Positions 1-41,739 of a stretch of DNA of 47,406 bases are shown piece by piece. Within the stretch, counting starts at the first letter, position 1; each line of letters opens with the position of its first letter. The position numbers were made by a program, and so were the translations under genes. The stretch lies in assembly GCA_034926675.1 (NCBI GenBank), contig JAYFQW010000035.1:1-47406 (forward strand), read 5' to 3'. The stretch is from Clostridia bacterium. GTDB taxonomy: Bacteria > Bacillota > DTU025. The notes under the pieces are model-generated. The model was given only the letters and a program-made list of their open reading frames with translations. It did no database searches and was not told where the DNA came from.

Positions 1-289
1 CTGCCGCCGGCTGACGCAACGATGGCGCTGCCTCCGGTTGAGTAGGAAACAGCGCATCCTATCGGCTCTCCAAACCGGCTGAAGCACGGCCATGGAATCG
101 CACGGGGCACAGCGCCGCCGCCGGCAAGGAGCCCCTGATGCGGCTCCCAGGCGGCGGCGCCCACCGATGGAACTGCGGCATCAGCTTTCAGCAGTTCCGC
201 AGATGTGGCGCACGTATCGGAAGAGCCAGGTTGCGTGAGGCGGCTAGAGGAGACTCGGGAGTCTGAACGCGAAGAGAATCACAACGGCA
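1..289. other. no recognisable gene; presumed inner side of an IS terminus
   Basis: I translated both strands and found no continuous recognisable protein; all frames are short or stop-rich. The stretch lies on what should be the inner side of the IS256-like terminal repeat at 290-318, yet it does not read as an IS256 transposase C-terminus. The missing rest of hsdM is not here either. It may be a non-coding part of the element or other rearranged sequence. Confidence 0.4.
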
Positions 290-318
290 ATTTACACCAC
301 TTGACAAGACGTGACCCA
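290..318 (-). repeat. IS256-like terminal inverted repeat, left copy
   Basis: These 29 bases are an exact reverse complement of 42702-42730. The layout, an outer tract GGGTCACGTCTTGTCAAG followed inward by TGGTGTAAAT, resembles IS256-family ends, where the inner part carries a TGTGTAAA-like run. By that analogy the element would extend leftward from 318, away from the hsdM remnant. The element family is inferred; the perfect inverted match is seen directly. Confidence 0.6.
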
Positions 319-373
319 CCCCTTTTCCGTCGCATCCGAAGGTTTCCTTAAATTGTATCCAACTCGTCAGCAT

Positions 374-1057
374 TATTTCGTAGATCGTGTTGCCCGCCTC
401 GGGCTTGGTGAGCTGAACCAGGAGGCGCACGACCTCGACAGGAGTGTAGAACTCCCCGCCTTTCTTGCCTGCGCTGTCGGCAAAATACTTGATAAGGTAT
501 TCATAAGCCGCGCCCAGCAGGTCGGGGAATTCGAAATTGTCATTGACCAACACGAATTGAGGTTGGTTGAAATGGTCCAGCAGGTCTTTCCACTTCTGGT
601 CGGGGATCTTGGTCTTGCCTTTGACGGCGTTGAAATCGATGTTGTTCTTGAGCACTCCGGCGAGGGCATCGTTTTCGTCTTCAATCGCAGCTATCGCCTT
701 ATTGAGCATATTGCCGATATCGTATTTCAGGTCCTTCAGCGCTGGAACCGTTTCGCCGTTTTCGTCGATCCACGACTGATGCCAGCGAGCGCGCACAGGA
801 ACAAAGAAGGTCTCGCCGTAAGATGTCTTGTCCTCAAGGAGCTCGTCAATCAGTTCGGGCCTATCTTTCAGATGAGCAAAGGACTCATGAACCAAGTGTT
901 CGCGCCTGAGATCGAACTCATCCGATAAACGCTTAAGAAATAGCATGCCGAATATGAATTCTTTGAACTCCGAAGCATCCATGCTGCCACGCAGGATATC
1001 GGCAGCCCTGAGAAGGAAGTGCTCCAGCTTGGAAAGGGTTATCTTTTCGGTAGACAA
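374..1057 (-). pseudogene. hsdM: type I restriction DNA methyltransferase (HsdM), 3'-truncated
   Basis: N-terminal part of the modification subunit of a type I restriction system, which would methylate adenine using SAM. The HsdM_N helical domain is clear ([20 protein letters not shown]) and the methyltransferase domain begins with [17 protein letters not shown]. The frame then leaves homology just before the SAM-binding DPxxGxGG motif, about 55 bases from the IS256-like repeat at 290-318. The NPPY catalytic motif is missing and no hsdS or hsdR is in view. The start is best placed at TTG 1057 with GGGGGAG five bases upstream, giving the expected N-terminus ([20 protein letters not shown]); a longer open frame running up to 1579 has no homology there. 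It is almost certainly dead. Confidence 0.85.
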
Positions 1058-1825
1058 ACGAAACTCCCCCTGCGCCGTGAATCTCTGGCATAGTTCGTCA
1101 GAACGAGACGATGTCCCTGCAGCGGTTGGGGCTAGATCAGCGATGTGCTCTACTGTGCCGCGAGCGAAGACGAAATGCCATCGTTTGAGAGCCCCAACTG
1201 ATTGAACTGCTCTATCCTGGGCACGGTGATGGGAGACGGCGAGACGATCAAAAGATGTGAACTCGGATAGAGGCCAGAGAGCGGGCACTGCTCCCATCGC
1301 GTTCCACTTGCCGGGAGATCCCAGCCGCGCAGCCACACCATCGCACCGCGCCACAGCGCAGCCGCCCCGCCCCGCTGCCCCGATCGATGGCTTAACCTGC
1401 AAACCCGCAGGGTGATCCGGGTTGATCCAAGGGGTGGTTACTATCTGTCCATCGAGAGGCAAAGCCTGCATCAGAAGTGTCCACCCAGTGCTGCTCGTGC
1501 GTCCGGGCCCCCCGAATCGCACAGCAACTGGGATCGAACCAGGCAAACTGGGACTCAGGACAGCCCCGCCTGCCCTCAAAACCCGCCATCATGCCGAGGG
1601 GTGGTGAATTACGATCCAGCGAAACGCGAAGGCTGCACAGAGAATGACCAGGGGGTGGATCGCAACTGTCCACCCCACCGTGGTTCGCAGGATCCGAGCC
1701 CGAACACGAGCCCAAACCCGGGGTAGGAGCCGAAGCCGAAGCCGATATCAGAGCAGAGCCCGCGCCGCCGCGGCTCCCTTCTGAGAAGTATGTTCTCAGC
1801 AACAGTGAGCGTTGGAATGAGGTTG
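1058..1825. other. intergenic debris
   Basis: About 770 bases without a supportable gene. Open frames on both strands are proline, arginine and serine rich and do not resemble known proteins. The only structure I can support is three repeats of IS21-end type between 1431 and 1672. Around 1720-1770 lies a low-complexity run rich in GAGCC and GAAGCC. Confidence 0.5.
1431..1672 (+). repeat. three 20-bp direct repeats, probable IS21-family end
   Basis: Units at 1431-1450, about 1598-1617 and 1651-1670 all begin GGGGTGG and mostly end in CTGTCC or GATCC (for example GGGGTGGATCGCAACTGTCC). Multiple short repeats starting GGGTGG and clustered at one end are typical of IS21-family termini. No istA or istB reading frame remains nearby, so this would be an isolated end left after loss of the element. 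Spacing is irregular (about 167 and 53 bp), which argues against CRISPR. Confidence 0.4.
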
Positions 1826-32949: not shown

Positions 32950-33513
32950 CTACGCCTTGGCAACAGTGAACACTATGGTTACGCCGTACCTATCTGCAGT
33001 ATCCTGCCAGGTGATGTCCATCTGGAAATCCATGGGCAGTTTCACCCAGTCTGGGCCCATACTCTCGTAGATCTGCGTAGACTGAGTTGAGAGAGGAATG
33101 AACTGCCCGGAACTGGATCGCCTCACCTTCATCTGGCTTACGGGGATCCGGTTTCCATTGGGCGAGACCAGCATCTCCTCGTCGGCGGCAACGGACACGA
33201 CAAACGGCACATTCCCGCGGACATCCGCGACGATGGAAGACGGTTTCCGGGCTGTCCGTCCCTCCACGGTCTCTTCCCCTGTCAGAAAATCCTCTGCCGA
33301 GAACGTCAGCAGAGATCGATCGAGGATCATGATCACAGTCTCAGGCACAAACACCCTCACCGGCAGGCTTGAGCTAGCAGCGCCTGGAGGAAGGGCGGGC
33401 CTTGCCGACGAGAGTGCAGCACATGCCGACCCACCCGCAAGGAGCAGTGCCGCCAGCATCACACATGCGGCCTCGAACCCTCTCCATGCAATGACATGCC
33501 CGATACGCGCCAT
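32950..33513 (-). CDS. secreted pilin-like beta protein (member of four-gene set)
   Basis: 187 residues with a signal peptide (about 12-32, FEAACVMLAALLLAGGSACA) and then an all-beta mature part. Midway it has DVRGNVPFVVSVAAD, and it ends DRYGVTIVFTVAKA. The same two elements recur in the secreted proteins at 37896, 38491 and 41130, resembling the donor or closing strand of spore-coat-U/archaic-pilin-like subunits. I know no named family. ATG 33513 has GGGGGGCAGGGGC in front; longer frames lack a site. Last gene of the secretin locus; it could be a minor subunit or adaptor. Confidence 0.6.
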   Translation of the reverse strand: MARIGHVIAWRGFEAACVMLAALLLAGGSACAALSSARPALPPGAASSSLPVRVFVPETVIMILDRSLLTFSAEDFLTGEETVEGRTARKPSSIVADVRGNVPFVVSVAADEEMLVSPNGNRIPVSQMKVRRSSSGQFIPLSTQSTQIYESMGPDWVKLPMDFQMDITWQDTADRYGVTIVFTVAKA

Positions 33514-33564
33514 GCCCCTGCCCCCCATCAGAATATGAACCAATGTGCGGGCTTACGCCGCGCA

Positions 33565-34962
33565 CTATCGATAGAACCCTATGCCCGCCTCAAAGGTCAC
33601 TGCGTTGTGGTCGTTTCCAGTGACCGACCCAGCTCCGATGCTCCGTACCGCGCCAAGCGACAGCCCGACCCCGCCCGGGAAGATGAACCCCCCGGTGACC
33701 CTGATGCCCTTCAGGCCGGGATCGCCCAGTATTGAAGCCGAAGCAGTCAGCAGCATGCCCTCACGCCGGTCTGGTTCGGCTCCTTCTGCTCGGTCCGATC
33801 CAAAAGACGCGGTTGCTCCTGCCTCCCACACCCCCAGGCCCCGATACACCCGAAAACGCTCATCGGCGCCGCCTGAGCTGCCTGCGCCGCCAGCGCCGTC
33901 TGCTGCGTAATCCTCGGAACCCTCTGCCACAAGCCCCACCGGATCCCATCGCGCCCATAAGCGAAGCCACTTGGCCACCTCTACCTGGTCTGAGAGGCCT
34001 AGCATCAGCGCTTTCGCGCCGCCGGGGCCCACGTTGCTTCCCATTCGGAGTTCGAAGGAAGAGCCCGGCTCAAGCCCAGTGGGCGCGTATGCAGCAAAGC
34101 TGAGGGTTCCGGCAGAGCTCAGGATCATCTGAACCCCAGCTCCAGCGGCGCTCGCAAGCGCTCCTTGTTCGCCCGTACGCGGGCCGAGGTTGCGATCGAA
34201 CGCAGACGACAGCCCGAAAGCGTCGGCGGCAAAGAGCACCGCGGATGGATGCTCAGCATCGCCCGGATTCACAGGCATCGCTGTCAGCAGCACTGCAAAC
34301 TCCCTATATTCGGCCTGTTCGGCCTGATGGCCATCCGTCGCGTCGCCGGACGCGGATGCAGCCTGCCCGGCAAATGCGGCACGCGCCACAGCGATGAGCG
34401 TTCGCTCGCCCGCACCGAGGGCTACTTCCTGAGTGACCCCATCCGTCCTGTATCCGCCACTGGATAGCGTGATCCGAGTGCGCGATTGCCCGGCAGCAGC
34501 GTCAAGGCCGAGCAGGACAAGCTCGATGACGTACTCATCGGTGACTGGCATCCCATGCGTGTACCTGGTGACGCTTGATGCGAAACGAGCCTTGCCGCCC
34601 TGCAGCACGATGAACCTGGCTTTACGCTCCGACTCTTCCCGAGCCGTCGTCGTTTCCGGAAGGATGTGCGGACCCACGTTCCCCATGAGCCCAACACTGC
34701 CAGGGGCGATGGCGAAATGGATGCCATGCGCCTCATCAAGGTGCGATGCAGCAATCTCCCTCGCGGCCGAAGGCCCAAAGACGCTGGCGATATCAACTAC
34801 CTCAATTTCGTACAGAACCGCCGCAAGGCCGATGGGATCGCCGCCCGAGGCAAATGCGTGGGAAGCTGCCGACAGCAACAGCAGCGCCGCCAGCACGATG
34901 GCAGCCAATTCCCGGCAGGCCCGCATGGAACCATGCTTGGGGGCTTGCTCCGAGGCCCTCAT
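33565..34962 (-). CDS. secreted protein with probable outer-membrane barrel domain
   Basis: 465 residues with a signal peptide (ELAAIVLAALLLLSAASHAFAS). The N-terminal half (about 45-270) is beta-rich with FIVLQGGKARFASSVTRY and is unfamiliar; the C-terminal half has repeated amphipathic strands (AGVQMILSSAGTLSFAAY, VEVAKWLRLWARWDPVGL, MLLTASASILGDPG, VGLSLGAVRSIGAGS, VTFEAGIGFYR) like a barrel. It begins right after the secretin stop (34962 against 34964) and must be co-translated with it. A glycine/acid loop (AADGAGGAGSSGGADE) interrupts the strands. A partner or cap of the secretin is possible. Confidence 0.6.
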   Translation of the reverse strand: MRASEQAPKHGSMRACRELAAIVLAALLLLSAASHAFASGGDPIGLAAVLYEIEVVDIASVFGPSAAREIAASHLDEAHGIHFAIAPGSVGLMGNVGPHILPETTTAREESERKARFIVLQGGKARFASSVTRYTHGMPVTDEYVIELVLLGLDAAAGQSRTRITLSSGGYRTDGVTQEVALGAGERTLIAVARAAFAGQAASASGDATDGHQAEQAEYREFAVLLTAMPVNPGDAEHPSAVLFAADAFGLSSAFDRNLGPRTGEQGALASAAGAGVQMILSSAGTLSFAAYAPTGLEPGSSFELRMGSNVGPGGAKALMLGLSDQVEVAKWLRLWARWDPVGLVAEGSEDYAADGAGGAGSSGGADERFRVYRGLGVWEAGATASFGSDRAEGAEPDRREGMLLTASASILGDPGLKGIRVTGGFIFPGGVGLSLGAVRSIGAGSVTGNDHNAVTFEAGIGFYR

Positions 34963-34963
34963 G

Positions 34964-36217
34964 CTATTTCACAACCTCAGCCGTGATGAAGACGAGAAGC
35001 TCATTCTCCACCTGCTGCTTCTCAGCCCTCTTGAACAGGAGACGGATCAGAGGGATATCCCCGAGCACGGGCGTCTTGGTCTCTCGGTCCAAAAGGTCCT
35101 TGCCGGAAAGCCCAGCTATGAGCAGGGTTTGTCCGGGAGTGATCCGCACAACCGAGCTGAACTCCGCCGCCCGCACCACAGGGCCGAATGTGGACTTGTC
35201 GGTGAAGTAACTCACCTTCTGGGATAGCTCCAGCTCTATCTGCTGGCCCCTGACCCGGGGCGTCACCTTCAGCTCAGTTCCGGCCTCGATCTTCTCCACG
35301 CGCGGCGTTGTGGTTGTTTCCGAACCGATCACTAGGTTGTACCTGTCGCCCACGAAGAGCGAGCCCGTCTTCCCATCGGAGATGATGATCACAGGATCGG
35401 CGTTCACACGCGCCCTGTCATCGCGCTCAAGCGCCCGGATCTTTGCAGCGATCCTTCCGAACACATCAGTGTCGAGGCCGATCGATCCCGATGCCAGGCT
35501 CAGCAGGGCGGTCCAGTCCGGTTTCACGGCCTGCCCATGCTCGAGCTCCCACTGGAAGCTATCGATGCCCCACTCCCGAACGACCTCACTCCTGACCTCG
35601 GTGACCAGCGCCTTGACCCTGATCTGAGGGCGGTCAGCGTCGATCTTGTCGAACAACGCCACAAGCCTGTTGATGGTCTCTCTCGGCGCTGATATCACTG
35701 CGATATCGCGTTCGGAGTCGAATTTCACGAATGGCTCATAAGCAGTGGGTGTAAGGAACCTGGCAGTAGAGGCGCTTATGCTCTTGAAGACGTACACCTC
35801 CGCCTCAGCGAGGTCCCCGAAGACTCTGTTTCTCGGATCGGCAAGGCCGACAATGTAGAAGTCATCCACGCGCCGGAATGCGTAGCCTCCTCCAGCGAGC
35901 ACCAAGCGAAGTGCACGCTCAACCGGAACATCGATGAGATCGAGGCTTACAGTGCCGGTGACGCTCGGATCCACTGCAATGTTCACGTCAGCCTGCAGCG
36001 CCAGCTCGGCTATGGCCTCGCGGATGTCGGTGTCGAAAAACGTGGCAGTGATGCTTGCATCCGCATGCTCCCCCGAGCCTTCGGCCACCCCGGATTCCGG
36101 CGAGCCAAGGGGCGCGGATGTAGGTGCAGCGCAAGCAATGCCCGTTGGCGACATTGACGAAGACCCAAGTAGAACTGCCACGAGAATGATGAATGCGGCT
36201 ACGTTGCCACTGCGCAA
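34964..36217 (-). CDS. secretin-family outer membrane channel protein
   Basis: 417 residues. Signal peptide, then an N-domain (ITATFFDTDIREAIAELALQ through VDPSVTGTVSLDLIDVPVERAL, a secretin/TonB short N-terminal fold), a ring domain (FVKFDSERDIAVISAPRETINRLVALFDKIDADRPQI), and the secretin core: VRVNADPVIIISDGKTGSLFVGDRYNL..., KVTPRV, IELELSQKVSYF, the pore signature TPGQTLLIAGLSGKD, and the end VPLLGDIPLIRLLFKRAE-like. Secretins form large multimeric pores in outer membranes for type II/III secretion or type IV pili. No GspE, GspF or PilQ-type neighbours are here; instead the neighbours are Ig-like and pilin-like proteins. Start TTG 36217 (AGGGG nine bases before) is preferred to 36226. Confidence 0.88.
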   Translation of the reverse strand: MRSGNVAAFIILVAVLLGSSSMSPTGIACAAPTSAPLGSPESGVAEGSGEHADASITATFFDTDIREAIAELALQADVNIAVDPSVTGTVSLDLIDVPVERALRLVLAGGGYAFRRVDDFYIVGLADPRNRVFGDLAEAEVYVFKSISASTARFLTPTAYEPFVKFDSERDIAVISAPRETINRLVALFDKIDADRPQIRVKALVTEVRSEVVREWGIDSFQWELEHGQAVKPDWTALLSLASGSIGLDTDVFGRIAAKIRALERDDRARVNADPVIIISDGKTGSLFVGDRYNLVIGSETTTTPRVEKIEAGTELKVTPRVRGQQIELELSQKVSYFTDKSTFGPVVRAAEFSSVVRITPGQTLLIAGLSGKDLLDRETKTPVLGDIPLIRLLFKRAEKQQVENELLVFITAEVVK

Positions 36218-36249
36218 GACGATCAACCCCTATCCCAGAAACCGTTTGC

Positions 36250-37785
36250 TCACTTAATCACTATTTCGAACGAGCTTGCGCCGATCTGCGCCTCATCCTC
36301 GTACACCCTGATCTCTGCCGTGTACTTGCCCGGCGCCACCCCCGACAAGAGCCCCGAGAGGGTGAGAAAACGGCCGGGCAGAACCGTTGGGCGATCCGCT
36401 CCCTCAACAGTAAGTCTGCTGGTTAAGGTCGCATTTCCGTTTGCTGGCCTCAGAACCAGAGTGGCCTTTGGCGACAACCTGACGTCTCCCGAGTTCCGGA
36501 TCACCATCGACACCAGCGCCTCTGCACCAGTGCGGTCTGCATTCAGACTGGCGACCTCCACAGCCCGAGCAGCCTTCCCGGGCACGATGGCTGCGAGGTC
36601 CACTGTCGTCTCCTCGAGGAGCCGTCCATCCGGTGAGATCGACTTGACCCTGAGAAGACCATAGTAGCCGCCTGGCGCAACATCCTTGGGAAGCCTTGCC
36701 GTAAGCACTACGGTGGCAGCCCGCCCAGCCAATAGCTGGAAGGAGGCGCCGTTCCTGACCTCCACATCGGCTGCACTGAATATCGATCTGGGGTAGTCGG
36801 TTTCGATCTCAGCAGGCTCCAAGATCACCTTGATGGGGCTGGAAGCTCGGTTCTCCACCTTGATGCCTTTGCTTGTCACAGCGCCTGCCCTGGCCTCGAA
36901 CTCGATCTCGGTTGGAGTCACCTTCGTCGACAACACTGAGGATTTTGGGTAGACAAAATCGCCGGGCTTCACCTGAACGCTCTTGACCTCAGTAATCTGC
37001 AATCCCGACGCGTACCGGAAGAATAGCCTGAGCTCGTAATCCCCTGGAGGCAGTGGCTCTTTGGGCATGCCGTAGTAGAGAACCTCAGCGTACGGATACA
37101 GACGCGGCTCTGAGATGTTCGAGGTCCACGATCCCTCAGGCTTGACCTCTACGCGCTCGACAAGCCTCTTCTTCGAGTCGCGAATCGTTGCCTCAGCAGA
37201 GGTGAGGTAGTCCATTGGAGATGCATTCCTGATCAATGCCCTCACCACTGGCTCTCCCTGCTCGCCCCTGGCAAGCTCCAACTTGCTGACCTGAGCTGAA
37301 GGCTTCTGGCCAGGTCGATCCACGCGGATATTCAGGCGCACCGCGTACCTAACTCGCAAGCTCACGCCCGTGTCCTTCTTCGCAAACTCCGGCTCCACCA
37401 TGATCACCACGATGTTTGAGCCGGCGGCGTCGTAGGGAATCCTCACGCTGCCTGCGACCCGAGTCTCCTGCCCTGGAGTGGATACGGCGGACTTGGGCAA
37501 GCTCACCCATGCCGAAGGCGGATACGTCTTGGAATCAGCCTGCTCATACCCGAGATTGCCGTTCTGCATCTGAACAGGGCGATACAGTGTGAACTCGACT
37601 CTCTCCTGCTTGTCTCCTGGCGTGAGGAACAGCTCGAACTCGGCAGTGTCGCCTGGGTTCACCGCTAGATCCAATACCAGAGGTCTGATGCCTGCGGCTG
37701 TGGAATGGCCTTCCGCAAGAACAAGCACGATCACGACAGCGAACGCCACCGTCAGAAAGCGTGCAAACCTGCAACTGATCCGCAA
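36250..37785 (-). CDS. secreted multi-Ig-domain protein, chaperone-like (PapD/DUF916-type N-domain)
   Basis: 511 residues with a signal peptide (about 8-30) and four Ig-like beta domains (about 35-150, 160-275, 285-400, 410-511). The first reads IRPLVLDLAVNPGDTAEFEL, then SAWVSLPKSAVSTPGQETR and VRIPYDAAGSNIVVIMVEPE: the order of strands and the basic/alternating pattern recall fimbrial chaperone and DUF916 domains. No LPxTG or membrane anchor at the end (SSFEIVIK). It lies directly upstream of the secretin (32-base gap). I infer a periplasmic chaperone or scaffold for the pilin-like proteins. TTG 37785 behind AAGGTGG. Confidence 0.6.
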   Translation of the reverse strand: MRISCRFARFLTVAFAVVIVLVLAEGHSTAAGIRPLVLDLAVNPGDTAEFELFLTPGDKQERVEFTLYRPVQMQNGNLGYEQADSKTYPPSAWVSLPKSAVSTPGQETRVAGSVRIPYDAAGSNIVVIMVEPEFAKKDTGVSLRVRYAVRLNIRVDRPGQKPSAQVSKLELARGEQGEPVVRALIRNASPMDYLTSAEATIRDSKKRLVERVEVKPEGSWTSNISEPRLYPYAEVLYYGMPKEPLPPGDYELRLFFRYASGLQITEVKSVQVKPGDFVYPKSSVLSTKVTPTEIEFEARAGAVTSKGIKVENRASSPIKVILEPAEIETDYPRSIFSAADVEVRNGASFQLLAGRAATVVLTARLPKDVAPGGYYGLLRVKSISPDGRLLEETTVDLAAIVPGKAARAVEVASLNADRTGAEALVSMVIRNSGDVRLSPKATLVLRPANGNATLTSRLTVEGADRPTVLPGRFLTLSGLLSGVAPGKYTAEIRVYEDEAQIGASSFEIVIK

Positions 37786-37895
37786 CGTGCATACCACCTT
37801 GCATAGGAATGTCCTGAGCGCACACTCGCGCGAAGGGCAGACCAGTGGAGGCAGATCCGCCCCACTCTCGCCTGCCCGCAGAAAACTGGGGAACC

Positions 37896-38490: not shown

Positions 38491-39375
38491 CTACTGCGGT
38501 TCCAGGGTGAACACCAGCTCTCCCCGATACTCCCCCGCCATCACTGAGTAATCAGTCTCAATAGAGAACTCCAGCTTTGCGAAAGGCGCCATGTATTGGG
38601 CTCCAGAGAAGAGCAGCGTGGGCAGTTCCCCCATCTGGAACCACTGGCTCGGTGTTCCGGTGTTCCATGGTATGGTGTGCCTCACTCGCATCGCTTCCGG
38701 CCCGATCACCGCCTCCGGGTGCTGCACGTTGGCCACTGCGCTCAGAGAGACCCTCACGGACCACTGCGCGTTCGGCGACTCCACCGTGACCATCGCTGGG
38801 CTCGTCGCCTGGTAAACGCCTGGCTGCGGAACATCGAACTCGAGCTGCGCGAGATTCACATTCACACTCCATCTGGGCCAGATCACCACAGAGAAGGGAA
38901 TCTCGGCGTGATCGACGGACCCGAGGAACACGTGGTCCACTATGAGCCTGATCGAGCCGGTGTATGTGCCAGGGGCGAGGCTCGCAACTTCGGGTGCAAC
39001 AGTGACATCGAACCATGATTCGTCATCAGCGTATTTCATGATTGTTGTGTTGAAATTGCACTTCGCGAATTGGTTGCTGTACCTGTGCCTCGCCCATATC
39101 GAGCCCACTGGAATCACGTGCCCGCCGCCGTCACTGAGGGGCGACACTTCCATGCGGACGTCTCCCACTAATATCCAGTACAATGAGGGCAAGCGAGTCA
39201 TTGATACCCGCTGCACGGGCCCATCTCCCACCGCCGAAAAAGGCCCATTCACAGCCAGTTGCACCGACGCAGGATTCGCCACAATACAGCCTGTCGCTGC
39301 CAATGCAGGCACACTCGCCATGGCGAGCAAGAGCATCAGCGGGACTGCGACTCTGGAAATTCGAGATTTACTCAA
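38491..39375 (-). CDS. secreted two-domain pilin-like protein (tip or adaptor candidate)
   Basis: 294 residues: signal peptide SRVAVPLMLLLAMASVPALA, then two beta domains (about 30-160 and 160-294). The second contains LAQLEFDVPQPGVYQATS, VESPNAQWSVRVSLSAV, and the end MAGEYRGELVFTLEPQ, which matches the closing strand of the neighbouring small proteins. Two-domain subunits at the start of pilus operons are often tip adhesins; that is only analogy. The start is uncertain: TTG 39375 has GAAGGG at 11 bases, while GTG 39411 gives a longer N-terminus but no ribosome site. Confidence 0.6.
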   Translation of the reverse strand: MSKSRISRVAVPLMLLLAMASVPALAATGCIVANPASVQLAVNGPFSAVGDGPVQRVSMTRLPSLYWILVGDVRMEVSPLSDGGGHVIPVGSIWARHRYSNQFAKCNFNTTIMKYADDESWFDVTVAPEVASLAPGTYTGSIRLIVDHVFLGSVDHAEIPFSVVIWPRWSVNVNLAQLEFDVPQPGVYQATSPAMVTVESPNAQWSVRVSLSAVANVQHPEAVIGPEAMRVRHTIPWNTGTPSQWFQMGELPTLLFSGAQYMAPFAKLEFSIETDYSVMAGEYRGELVFTLEPQ

Positions 39376-39538
39376 GTCCGCCAACACCCTTCGAGCGGAT
39401 TCGGCAGTCACATAGTTCAGTTTGTATTATCCACGGGAATGTTGCAGGAATGTTGCATTGGTTCGGCAGAAGCAGCCGGAACTGAAAGGAGAGGCGCTGA
39501 AAGCCGGGGGGAGAGCAACGGATGTACGCGTGATCCGC

Positions 39539-40879
39539 CTACCTGACAGGATCGAGAGCCCGGGTCGTCACATCAGCGATAACTCCGAGCAACTGAGGAT
39601 CAGTGGAGGCGAGGTCCCGAATTCTGCCTGCAACTATCTCTGCGCCCCGCAGATCGGTGGAGGTGAGAAGAAAGACGAGGTGGGCATCGTCAAACCTGCA
39701 CACCGCATCGCCCTTTCGGAGGGCGCCGCTGTACGCCGCCTCGATCCTATCCAGGGCTGCACCGTTTCCAACTAGATCAGGCTGGTCCGACGAGTCGCTC
39801 GATCCAACGGTAACGAAAACAACAGAGGACTCCTCGCCCGTCCTTGCCACTCGCCTTCTCTCCAGGGCCAGCAGTTGGTGGAAGACCTCCACATCGCACT
39901 TGAGTGCACCGGGCGCATCACCAACTGAGATGAGCATCTCCTCAAGCTCTGTACGCTTGCAGGTCCGCGCGGACTGGTCCATTGCCTTTCGGTCTGGCTC
40001 AGCCCGGTCTGAACCTGTACGCTTGCAGGTCCGCGCGGGCTGGTGCTCACGGAGATCCTGGTAGAGCTGCTTGTACTCCTCCGATGGACTGATCCCAAGC
40101 TCCCGGTAAAGAAGGCCGGTGCTGTACGAATAGTGGTCCGCAGCGCCAGTCCAGTCGCCTAGACCCATGAGCGCCCGAGCATAGAGAATGTGAAGCTCCT
40201 CTGCGAAGCTATCCTCAGCTAAAGCGTGCTGCAGGACAGCCCTTGCCCTTGTGCAGTCGGATGCGCCCATGAGAATCCTCGCGGCCTCCTTGGACGACTC
40301 CATGAACAGCCTGCGGTAATGCTCCCGTGGAACCACGGTCCAGTCAGAATATGGGTCCTCAGCAAGGAAATAGCCCCTGTACAACTCGAGAGCATCGCAG
40401 AACAGGTTGCCCGCCGCAGCCTCGTCCGACGCTCTGAGCTTGAGTGCATGAGCGCAGGTGCGTTCAAACTCCTCGACGTCGATCCACACCTTCGCGGACG
40501 GGTTGAATGCACACACATCCCTGGCGCACGTCAGATAGCTGGACCTAGAGTAGGACCTACTGCCAGGCTCCAGCATGCTCTTGAGCCTGGAGAGCGTCGT
40601 GCGCAGCTGGGATGTGTTGTCGTCGCTGTCGCTCTTGGGCCAGAACACCCGGATTATCTCAGAGGTTGGCGCCGCAGTCCCGCGCCGCGACACGAGATAC
40701 TTGAAAAGCGCCCATGCCTTCTGCGTTGAACCCACACCAATTGGGCTCGTGTCGCCTGGCCGCACTACCCTGAATACGCCGAGACAGTAGACGCGAAGCG
40801 CGTCCACGCCATCAACCTGGGGCGCAGCACAGTCCCCCCGAGAATGCGCGGAGTGGTCAGCCGCATCTGTCCATGTCAC
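39539..40879 (-). CDS. BTAD/SARP-type transcriptional regulator with degenerate GGDEF domain
   Basis: 446 residues, not secreted. The N-terminal OmpR-like winged helix (LRVYCLGVFRVVRPGD, STQKAWALFKYLVSRRG, LRTTLSRLKSMLE) is followed by a bacterial transcriptional activation domain of TPR-like helices (about 135-280), the SARP/BTAD architecture. The C-terminus (about 330-446) reads LLALERRRVARTGEESSVVFV, LRKGDAVCRFDDAHLVFLLT and follows the GGDEF plan, but GGDEF itself is FDDAH, so no cyclase activity is expected. A linker holds a repeated ARTCKRT. GTG 40879 with GGAGG nine bases upstream. Likely regulator of the adjacent secretin locus, possibly sensing c-di-GMP or GTP. Confidence 0.8.
   Translation of the reverse strand: MTWTDAADHSAHSRGDCAAPQVDGVDALRVYCLGVFRVVRPGDTSPIGVGSTQKAWALFKYLVSRRGTAAPTSEIIRVFWPKSDSDDNTSQLRTTLSRLKSMLEPGSRSYSRSSYLTCARDVCAFNPSAKVWIDVEEFERTCAHALKLRASDEAAAGNLFCDALELYRGYFLAEDPYSDWTVVPREHYRRLFMESSKEAARILMGASDCTRARAVLQHALAEDSFAEELHILYARALMGLGDWTGAADHYSYSTGLLYRELGISPSEEYKQLYQDLREHQPARTCKRTGSDRAEPDRKAMDQSARTCKRTELEEMLISVGDAPGALKCDVEVFHQLLALERRRVARTGEESSVVFVTVGSSDSSDQPDLVGNGAALDRIEAAYSGALRKGDAVCRFDDAHLVFLLTSTDLRGAEIVAGRIRDLASTDPQLLGVIADVTTRALDPVR
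39950..40038. repeat. in-frame tandem duplication inside the BTAD regulator gene
   Basis: A 23-base stretch at 39950-39972 recurs without change at 40016-40038, 66 bases (22 codons) apart. It encodes the peptide ARTCKRT twice in the linker between BTAD and the GGDEF-like domain. The intervening sequence is not repeated as clearly, so only part of the duplication remains recognisable. Confidence 0.8.
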
Positions 40880-41129
40880 CCGCCATCGCCTCCACACGCC
40901 CCAGCCAGGACCAAGTGATAGATGACACCATGATCATATATACGCCCCGCAACACTGATTGCCCTGCTGAGAATCGGCGGAGCACAAGGAGACTCCAGAC
41001 AGCCGCGAAGCCGGTAGAAACGATAGGCGCGGAGCATCCAAGCCAGCCTTCACCGACCAAGATGCCCCGCCCAGCGGTCGTGCATTCGCAACCGCAGCCA
41101 GCTCCGGCCCGTATTCGCCTGTTCGAGAC

Positions 41130-41609
41130 TCACTGAACTGACCAGAGCCCCACGCTGTACTGAAGCGGGTATGTCCCACTGTCCGCTGAGGAGGCTGGAA
41201 TCGAGAGATCGAAGGTCACCTCGTAGGCTCCTGCGCCAGCCCCTACAGCTGACCCCGTGACCACTGCATGCTGCTGGATCGTGCTTCCGCGGCCCACGCC
41301 CATAGTGGTTACCGTGACTGAACTCACCACCGGGACGACCCCAGGCGCCATCGGCTCCACATCCACAACAGCCTGCCACGGGACATTGGAGAATACCCCT
41401 AGACGGACTGCGCTCCTCACCATCATTGCCTTGCCGGTGTAATCCACCTGACTTACCTCGGAGATGCGATCGACCCTTTGCATTGCAGGAACCACAATCT
41501 CCACCTTCAGATCCGCGCGCGCCTGCGCCGCAGCGGCGGCGCCTCCGTACGCCTGAACAAGCAGCAAGAGCACGATCGTGAGCGCAGCGATGGCTCTCCG
41601 TGCCATCAT
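41130..41609 (-). CDS. secreted pilin-like beta protein under riboswitch control
   Basis: 159 residues: signal peptide (RRAIAALTIVLLLLVQAYGG), mature part with RADLKVEIVVPAMQRVDRIS, VFSNVPWQAVVDVEP, VTGSAVGAGAGAYEVTFDLS and the end DSGTYPLQYSVGLWSVQ. The mid-strand NVPWQAVV and the last strand GTYPLQYSV are shared with the secreted genes at 32950, 37896 and 38491. The start is ATG 41609, eight bases after AAGGAGGG; this ribosome site lies at the 3' edge of the c-di-GMP riboswitch. I read it as a surface subunit whose translation responds to c-di-GMP. Confidence 0.65.
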   Translation of the reverse strand: MMARRAIAALTIVLLLLVQAYGGAAAAAQARADLKVEIVVPAMQRVDRISEVSQVDYTGKAMMVRSAVRLGVFSNVPWQAVVDVEPMAPGVVPVVSSVTVTTMGVGRGSTIQQHAVVTGSAVGAGAGAYEVTFDLSIPASSADSGTYPLQYSVGLWSVQ

Positions 41610-41612
41610 GAC

Positions 41613-41708
41613 ACCCTCCTTCGGCTGCCCGGCTGCCATAGCGCATCAAGTGCGCCTTAGGCCCGTGGCTTTGCGTCCCCGTCTTTAGGCGGGTTTGCCT
41701 TTGTCGTG
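41613..41708 (-). ncRNA. c-di-GMP-I (GEMM) riboswitch
   Basis: The minus strand carries the aptamer core in order: GGCAAACCC (41691-41699), a short hairpin CCCG/CGGG, GGGACGCAAAGCCACGGGCC with the hallmark ACGCAAAGCC, CCTAA, a second hairpin GCGCA/TGCGC, and a closing GGCAGCCGGGCAGCC (3' limit near 41622). Each block and its order match the c-di-GMP-I class consensus. The ribosome-binding site of the next gene (41613-41621) touches its 3' end and no terminator lies between, so control of translation is likely. Family assignment is strong; ON or OFF polarity cannot be told. Confidence 0.92.
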
Positions 41709-41739
41709 AAGGCGACAAACACTCCGACGTTTGTCCCTA

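What the first reader, a model, noticed from the sequence alone, without database searches (positions are those of the whole stretch)
41613..41708. c-di-GMP-I riboswitch directly controlling a secreted pilin-like gene
The aptamer has all hallmark blocks, including ACGCAAAGCC, and its 3' edge touches the ribosome site, with no terminator between. GEMM riboswitches often control pili, adhesins and motility; here it points to a c-di-GMP-dependent surface protein and, by neighbourhood, to the secretin locus.
Basis: partly seen in the sequence, partly recalled or inferred. Interest (0 to 1): 0.72.

Follow-up and report, generated by a model that had tools for sequence, protein, structure and literature searches.

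The report
c-di-GMP riboswitch on secreted surface protein
A bacterial RNA sensor for the signal molecule c-di-GMP sits right on the ribosome-binding site of a small secreted-protein gene, and the same sensor-gene pair recurs beside a previously undescribed cell-surface gene cluster in other Bacillota bacteria, several from lineages known to have two membranes.

Summary
Window 41620-41709(-) is a full-length Rfam c-di-GMP-I aptamer (79.3 bits, E 4.5e-14), the only one found in this genome. Its 3' edge runs into the AAGGAGGG ribosome site of a 159-aa secreted protein (41609-41130). The protein is not a type IV pilin: it has a Sec signal and no prepilin motif. It belongs to an undescribed, probably beta-sandwich family.

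What makes it more than routine is conservation. Relatives of this gene at 14 further loci were found preceded by one or two c-di-GMP-I aptamers. They lie beside a conserved cluster: a WxLIP-like protein (HHalign 93%, E 3.8e-7; resembles E. faecium WxLIP 9i1y), small secreted proteins, often a short secretin, and a BTAD regulator. Several loci also carry a c-di-GMP-II aptamer before a second small secreted protein.

Predicted mechanism: c-di-GMP stabilises P1; a CUCC/CCUUC element 5' of P1 pairs with the ribosome site; translation goes OFF. This is clear in relatives and only weakly supported in the window. Direct control of the secretin genes is not supported.

Verdict: an ordinary riboswitch class in a new, conserved regulatory context. 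Ligand binding, ON/OFF direction and protein function are untested.

The parts
41620..41709 (-). c-di-GMP-I (GEMM-I) riboswitch aptamer
   Evidence: Rfam RF01051, 79.3 bits, E 4.5e-14, full length; only copy in the genome
41708..41712 (-). candidate anti-Shine-Dalgarno CCUUC at the 5' edge of P1
   Evidence: complementary to GAAGG at 41622-41618; flank duplex -12.4 kcal/mol, reached by 7.5-9.5% of shuffles; relatives have CUCC at this place
41614..41621 (-). Shine-Dalgarno AAGGAGGG, immediately 3' of P1
   Evidence: sequence; start codon 10 nt after the aptamer end
41130..41609 (-). target gene: 159-aa secreted protein ('P41k' family), probable beta-sandwich
   Evidence: homologs behind GEMM-I aptamers in other genomes
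39539..40897 (-). BTAD (SARP-like) regulator with a GGDEF-like, apparently degenerate C-terminus
   Evidence: Pfam BTAD 5e-14; homologs in related clusters; GGDEF-like tail judged by eye, Pfam GGDEF not reached
38491..39411 (-). 306-aa secreted protein
   Evidence: homolog in L076
37896..38417 (-). 173-aa small secreted protein; homologs in relatives carry a c-di-GMP-II riboswitch
36250..37797 (-). 515-aa WxLIP-like multi-Ig protein
   Evidence: homologs at 30-38% identity; HHalign to WxLIP 92.9%, E 3.8e-7; fold match 9i1y
34964..36226 (-). short secretin, one of four in the genome
   Evidence: Pfam Secretin 7.8e-34; up to 53% identity to cluster secretins
33565..34962 (-). 465-aa secreted protein after the secretin, possibly outer-membrane
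   Evidence: weak homologs at the same place
32950..33543 (-). 197-aa small secreted protein

Best explanation
A class I c-di-GMP riboswitch with a compact translational platform controls one small secreted protein (P41k). The Shine-Dalgarno sequence lies directly 3' of helix P1. When c-di-GMP binds, P1 is stabilised, and a pyrimidine element just 5' of P1 (CCUUC in the window, CUCC in relatives) is brought against the Shine-Dalgarno (GAAGG / GGAG), so translation falls. Without ligand P1 opens and the site is more accessible. P41k belongs to a conserved surface gene set: a WxLIP-like multi-Ig protein, several small secreted proteins, often a dedicated short secretin, and a BTAD regulator with a GGDEF-like tail. 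In relatives the same gene is often governed by a tandem of a terminator-type and a translational c-di-GMP-I switch, and another small secreted protein by a c-di-GMP-II switch. Shown: aptamer, position on the ribosome site, recurrent pairing with the P41k family, conserved cluster, WxLIP homology. Inferred: ligand binding, OFF direction, surface assembly function.
For: Rfam match. Aptamer end to start codon is 10-13 nt with the ribosome site touching P1 in the window, L036, L076, L077, L100, L101, L103, L106, L109, L118 and, read by eye, L155; in 30 other GEMM-I loci read by eye I saw no such arrangement. CUCC 5' of P1 pairs with GGAG in the L036-type relatives, reached by 0-2% of shuffles, and the P1-formed fold buries the site in most relatives. 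P41k genes are preceded by GEMM-I in the window and 14 loci plus L152 and L155, against about 3 GEMM-I per genome. The genome has 8 GGDEF and 2 EAL matches, so c-di-GMP is probably made there. WxLIP homology.
Against: In the window itself the anti-SD pairing is weak: shuffles reach it 7.5-9.5% of the time, and the fold with P1 formed leaves the ribosome site more open, not less (mean unpaired 0.62 against 0.41). In relatives the anti-SD helix also forms when P1 is forbidden, so equilibrium folding does not itself show switching. Class I switches can be ON: Vc1 raises expression with c-di-GMP (PMC4744006). Two P41k homologs (L154, L160) have no c-di-GMP-I aptamer. No ligand data.
Confidence: 0.72

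Rival explanations
1. Same riboswitch and target, but a genetic ON switch: ligand-bound P1 stacks beside the Shine-Dalgarno and keeps it out of competing pairings, so c-di-GMP raises translation of the surface protein.
For: In the window, forcing P1 makes the ribosome site more open (0.62 against 0.41 mean unpaired). c-di-GMP commonly promotes surface attachment, and Vc1 (class I) and a C. difficile class II switch before a pilin gene are ON switches (PMC4744006).
Against: In relatives with the same layout the P1-formed state buries the Shine-Dalgarno in a conserved CUCC:GGAG helix. Vc2 is described as a translational OFF switch that works through P1 (PMC9262584).
Confidence: 0.3
2. The riboswitch controls the whole minus-strand cluster 41609-32950, including the secretin, as one transcription unit.
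For: All eight genes are on one strand with gaps of 1-232 nt, and no terminator-like site is seen in the first gap.
Against: The platform is translational and 232 nt separate P41k from the next gene. In relatives P41k lies elsewhere relative to the cluster and has its own aptamer. No transcript data.
Confidence: 0.12
3. The aptamer is a relic or binds a different cyclic dinucleotide (for example c-AMP-GMP).
For: UAAA instead of GAAA loop and a mismatch in P2; the only GEMM-I in the genome; absent from all seven same-family genomes searched.
Against: High full-length score. The selectivity position, which I map to the second G of GGCAAA, is G, the c-di-GMP type (PMC9481103; PMC9262584; mapping is mine). 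Same gene pairing in other genomes.
Confidence: 0.08

Closest known systems
c-di-GMP-I (GEMM-I) riboswitch, RF01051, e.g. V. cholerae Vc2
   Same: full-length aptamer match; predicted P1-based translational control as described for Vc2 (PMC9262584)
   Different: Shine-Dalgarno directly abuts P1, with the start codon 10 nt from the aptamer end; single target is an undescribed secreted protein; UAAA loop in P2
Tandem c-di-GMP-I riboswitches (PMC9481103: 347 doublets, 12 triplets)
   Same: relatives of this locus carry two class I aptamers before the same gene
   Different: in relatives the first has a terminator-like hairpin and the second a translational platform, with a class II switch on a nearby gene; the window has only the translational one
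WxL / WxLIP (csc) surface gene clusters of Bacilli (PMC10599100, PMC9772566)
   Same: one WxLIP-like multi-Ig protein with several small secreted proteins
   Different: small proteins do not match the WxL domain model; a secretin is often present; c-di-GMP riboswitches; relatives found in Limnochordaceae, Halanaerobiales and other Bacillota MAGs
C. difficile class II c-di-GMP riboswitch before a type IV pilin gene (cited in PMC4744006)
   Same: c-di-GMP RNA sensor on a surface-protein gene
   Different: class I, not II; target is not a type IV pilin

Membership tests
c-di-GMP-I riboswitch (RF01051) | covariance-model score above gathering over the full model | tested here: met
   79.3 bits against 35, 1-87/87
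c-di-GMP-I riboswitch (RF01051) | c-di-GMP contact residues (Vc2 G20, A47, C92) | tested here: inconclusive
   conserved blocks GGCAAA, GACGCAAAGCC and final CC are present in the alignment, but residue mapping to Vc2 is my own
c-di-GMP-I riboswitch (RF01051) | ligand binding and ligand-dependent expression | not testable with these tools
   needs in-line probing and a reporter
Translational riboswitch | Shine-Dalgarno pairing changes with aptamer state | tested here: inconclusive
   anti-SD helix in relatives, weak and of opposite sign in the window; no equilibrium switching
Type IV pilin | prepilin cleavage motif before a hydrophobic helix | tested here: not met
   none in the first 45 residues; AxA sites instead
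WxLIP (DUF916/DUF3324), window 36250-37797 | sequence and fold similarity to WxLIP | tested here: met
   HHalign 92.9%, E 3.8e-7 over 253 columns; 9i1y TMt 0.57; Pfam WxLIP_PGBD in 3 of 12 members, weak
WxLIP (DUF916/DUF3324), window 36250-37797 | C-terminal transmembrane helix | tested here: not met
   sequence and predicted structure end in beta strands; so WxLIP-like, not a typical WxLIP
WxL domain (PF13731), P41k | model or profile match and two WxL motifs | tested here: not met
   no PF13731 hit for A4 members or at these loci; HHalign 2.7%; an SNxxW and a later W/F-D-[VIL] motif are present but spaced about 47 residues

The most novel reading that the evidence does not exclude
A WxLIP-related, secretin-dependent surface assembly of diderm Bacillota whose small subunits are individually set by c-di-GMP through up to three RNA sensors of two unrelated classes, including a transcriptional-plus-translational class I tandem on a single gene.
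Probability: 0.3. Interest if true: 0.72.

Novelty: new variant of a known kind. Interest (0 to 1): 0.5.

Why it matters
Recurrent pairing of c-di-GMP riboswitches with one uncharacterised secreted family marks that family and its cluster as part of c-di-GMP-controlled surface behaviour in poorly cultured Bacillota, several of them from lineages with an outer membrane. It gives a concrete, testable target: how such bacteria export surface proteins through a dedicated secretin, and whether WxLIP-type complexes have an outer-membrane counterpart. The tandem in relatives is a natural case of one signal apparently read at both transcription and translation of one gene.

Tried and rejected
Type IV pilin: rejected (no prepilin motif). 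WxL domain for P41k: suggested by a recurring W-x-L-like motif, not supported by profile comparison or PF13731. Chaperone-usher chaperone for 36250-37797: my first guess, replaced by WxLIP-like. P41k structure: model confidence is low (pLDDT 69) and PDB matches are inconclusive (FimA, FedF and archaeal filaments among weak hits). c-di-GMP-II in this genome: none found (though its controls also rang nowhere; none in the window). An iterated small-protein profile drifted across all small secreted proteins, so membership was redone with a fixed profile. Comparison A4 against A5 shares a sequence and was not used. Literature: no held paper joins c-di-GMP riboswitch with Limnochordia or with Halanaerobiales and outer membrane, and none of the 12 papers listed for WxL/DUF916 mentions c-di-GMP; most subscription journals are not covered.

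Full report
Observation. Rfam places a complete c-di-GMP-I aptamer at 41709-41620 on the minus strand (79.3 bits, gathering 35, E 4.5e-14). It is the only c-di-GMP-I match in the 3.38-Mb, 97%-complete genome. The Shine-Dalgarno AAGGAGGG (41621-41614) begins inside the last two bases of the aptamer match and the ATG is at 41609. No terminator intervenes.

Target gene. The 159-aa product has a Sec signal peptide, no prepilin motif and no Pfam family. Its AlphaFold model is mostly beta strands but of low confidence (pLDDT 69), and the PDB search is inconclusive. I call the family P41k.

Conservation. A protein search found a homolog in G027 that starts 12 nt after the second of two tandem class I aptamers, in a locus that also has a c-di-GMP-II aptamer before a homolog of the window's 173-aa secreted protein. 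Searching with the neighbouring 515-aa protein, then scanning those loci with Rfam, gave the wider picture: P41k-family genes are preceded by class I aptamers in L036, L076, L077, L078, L080, L100, L101, L103, L105, L106, L107, L109, L112 and L118 (the gene is cut by the contig end in L106 and L109). The named contigs are Bacillota MAGs, including Limnochordaceae and Halanaerobiales. A fixed P41k profile over 398 genomes found ten strong genes (E below 1e-14) including the window; eight have a class I aptamer upstream. Of the four not used to build the profile, two have one (L152, L155) and two do not (L154, L160). Background is about three class I aptamers per genome (roughly 197 in 61 genomes, my sum), so on the order of one gene in a thousand. 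Ascertainment is not perfect: some rows of the profile were first noticed because they follow an aptamer. All seven same-family genomes searched lack the aptamer and none gave a P41k match.

Cluster. The 515-aa protein has full-length relatives at 30-38% identity. Its model (pLDDT 85) matches E. faecium WxLIP (9i1y, 9i25; TMt 0.57-0.60) among many multi-Ig hits. It lacks the C-terminal transmembrane helix of WxLIP as described in PMC10599100. Secretins at 29-53% identity to the window's accompany many of these loci. A BTAD regulator whose C-terminus looks like a degenerate GGDEF domain recurs; that reading is by eye. The genome encodes Omp85, four secretins, 8 GGDEF and 2 EAL matches, consistent with an outer membrane and c-di-GMP signalling.

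Mechanism. In eleven loci the start codon lies 10-13 nt after the aptamer end with the ribosome site touching P1 (L155 by eye). In the L036-type relatives a CUCC just 5' of P1 faces GGAG just 3' of it; flank duplexes there beat nearly all shuffles, and folding with P1 formed buries the site. That predicts translational OFF, as described for Vc2 (PMC9262584). In the window the equivalent CCUUC:GAAGG pairing is possible but not significant (7.5-9.5% of shuffles), and the fold does not show burial; hairpins formed by three alternating 7-mers at 41700-41736 compete. In relatives the helix forms with or without P1, so equilibrium folding does not demonstrate switching. I therefore hold OFF at only modestly better than even. 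In tandem loci the first aptamer is followed by a terminator-like hairpin with a T-run (by eye).

Secretin locus. The genes from 41609 to 32950 share a strand with gaps of 1-232 nt, but a translational platform at 41621 would act on P41k, not on genes 232 nt and more downstream. Synteny supports a shared function, not direct control.

Verdict. A known riboswitch class, correctly read, in a conserved context I did not find described. The riboswitch alone is a new member of a known kind; the riboswitch / WxLIP-like / secretin arrangement is a new variant. Ligand binding, direction, transcription units and protein function remain untested.

Noticed in passing
window 39539-40897 (-): BTAD regulator with a GGDEF-like, apparently degenerate C-terminus; homologs recur in related clusters, one seemingly just upstream of a P41k gene without a riboswitch (L154).
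   Followed up: partly
window 41700-41736: Three alternating 7-mers (TTTGTCG, CGACAAA, TTTGTCC on the + strand) at the 5' edge of the aptamer can form mutually exclusive hairpins.
   Followed up: partly
window 41639-41637 (-): An in-frame ATG lies inside the aptamer (GCTATGGCAGCC), giving a possible longer reading frame of 169 aa.
   Followed up: no
L078, L154, L160: SAM riboswitches near P41k genes; in L078 ahead of metNIQ-like genes.
   Followed up: no
L036 4152-4435, and L101, L106, L109 and others: Tandem class I aptamers before one gene: first with a terminator-like hairpin, second abutting the ribosome site, plus a c-di-GMP-II aptamer on a nearby gene.
   Followed up: partly
window 188-1579 (-): Protein matching the HsdM N-terminal domain but only the start of the methylase domain.
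   Followed up: no
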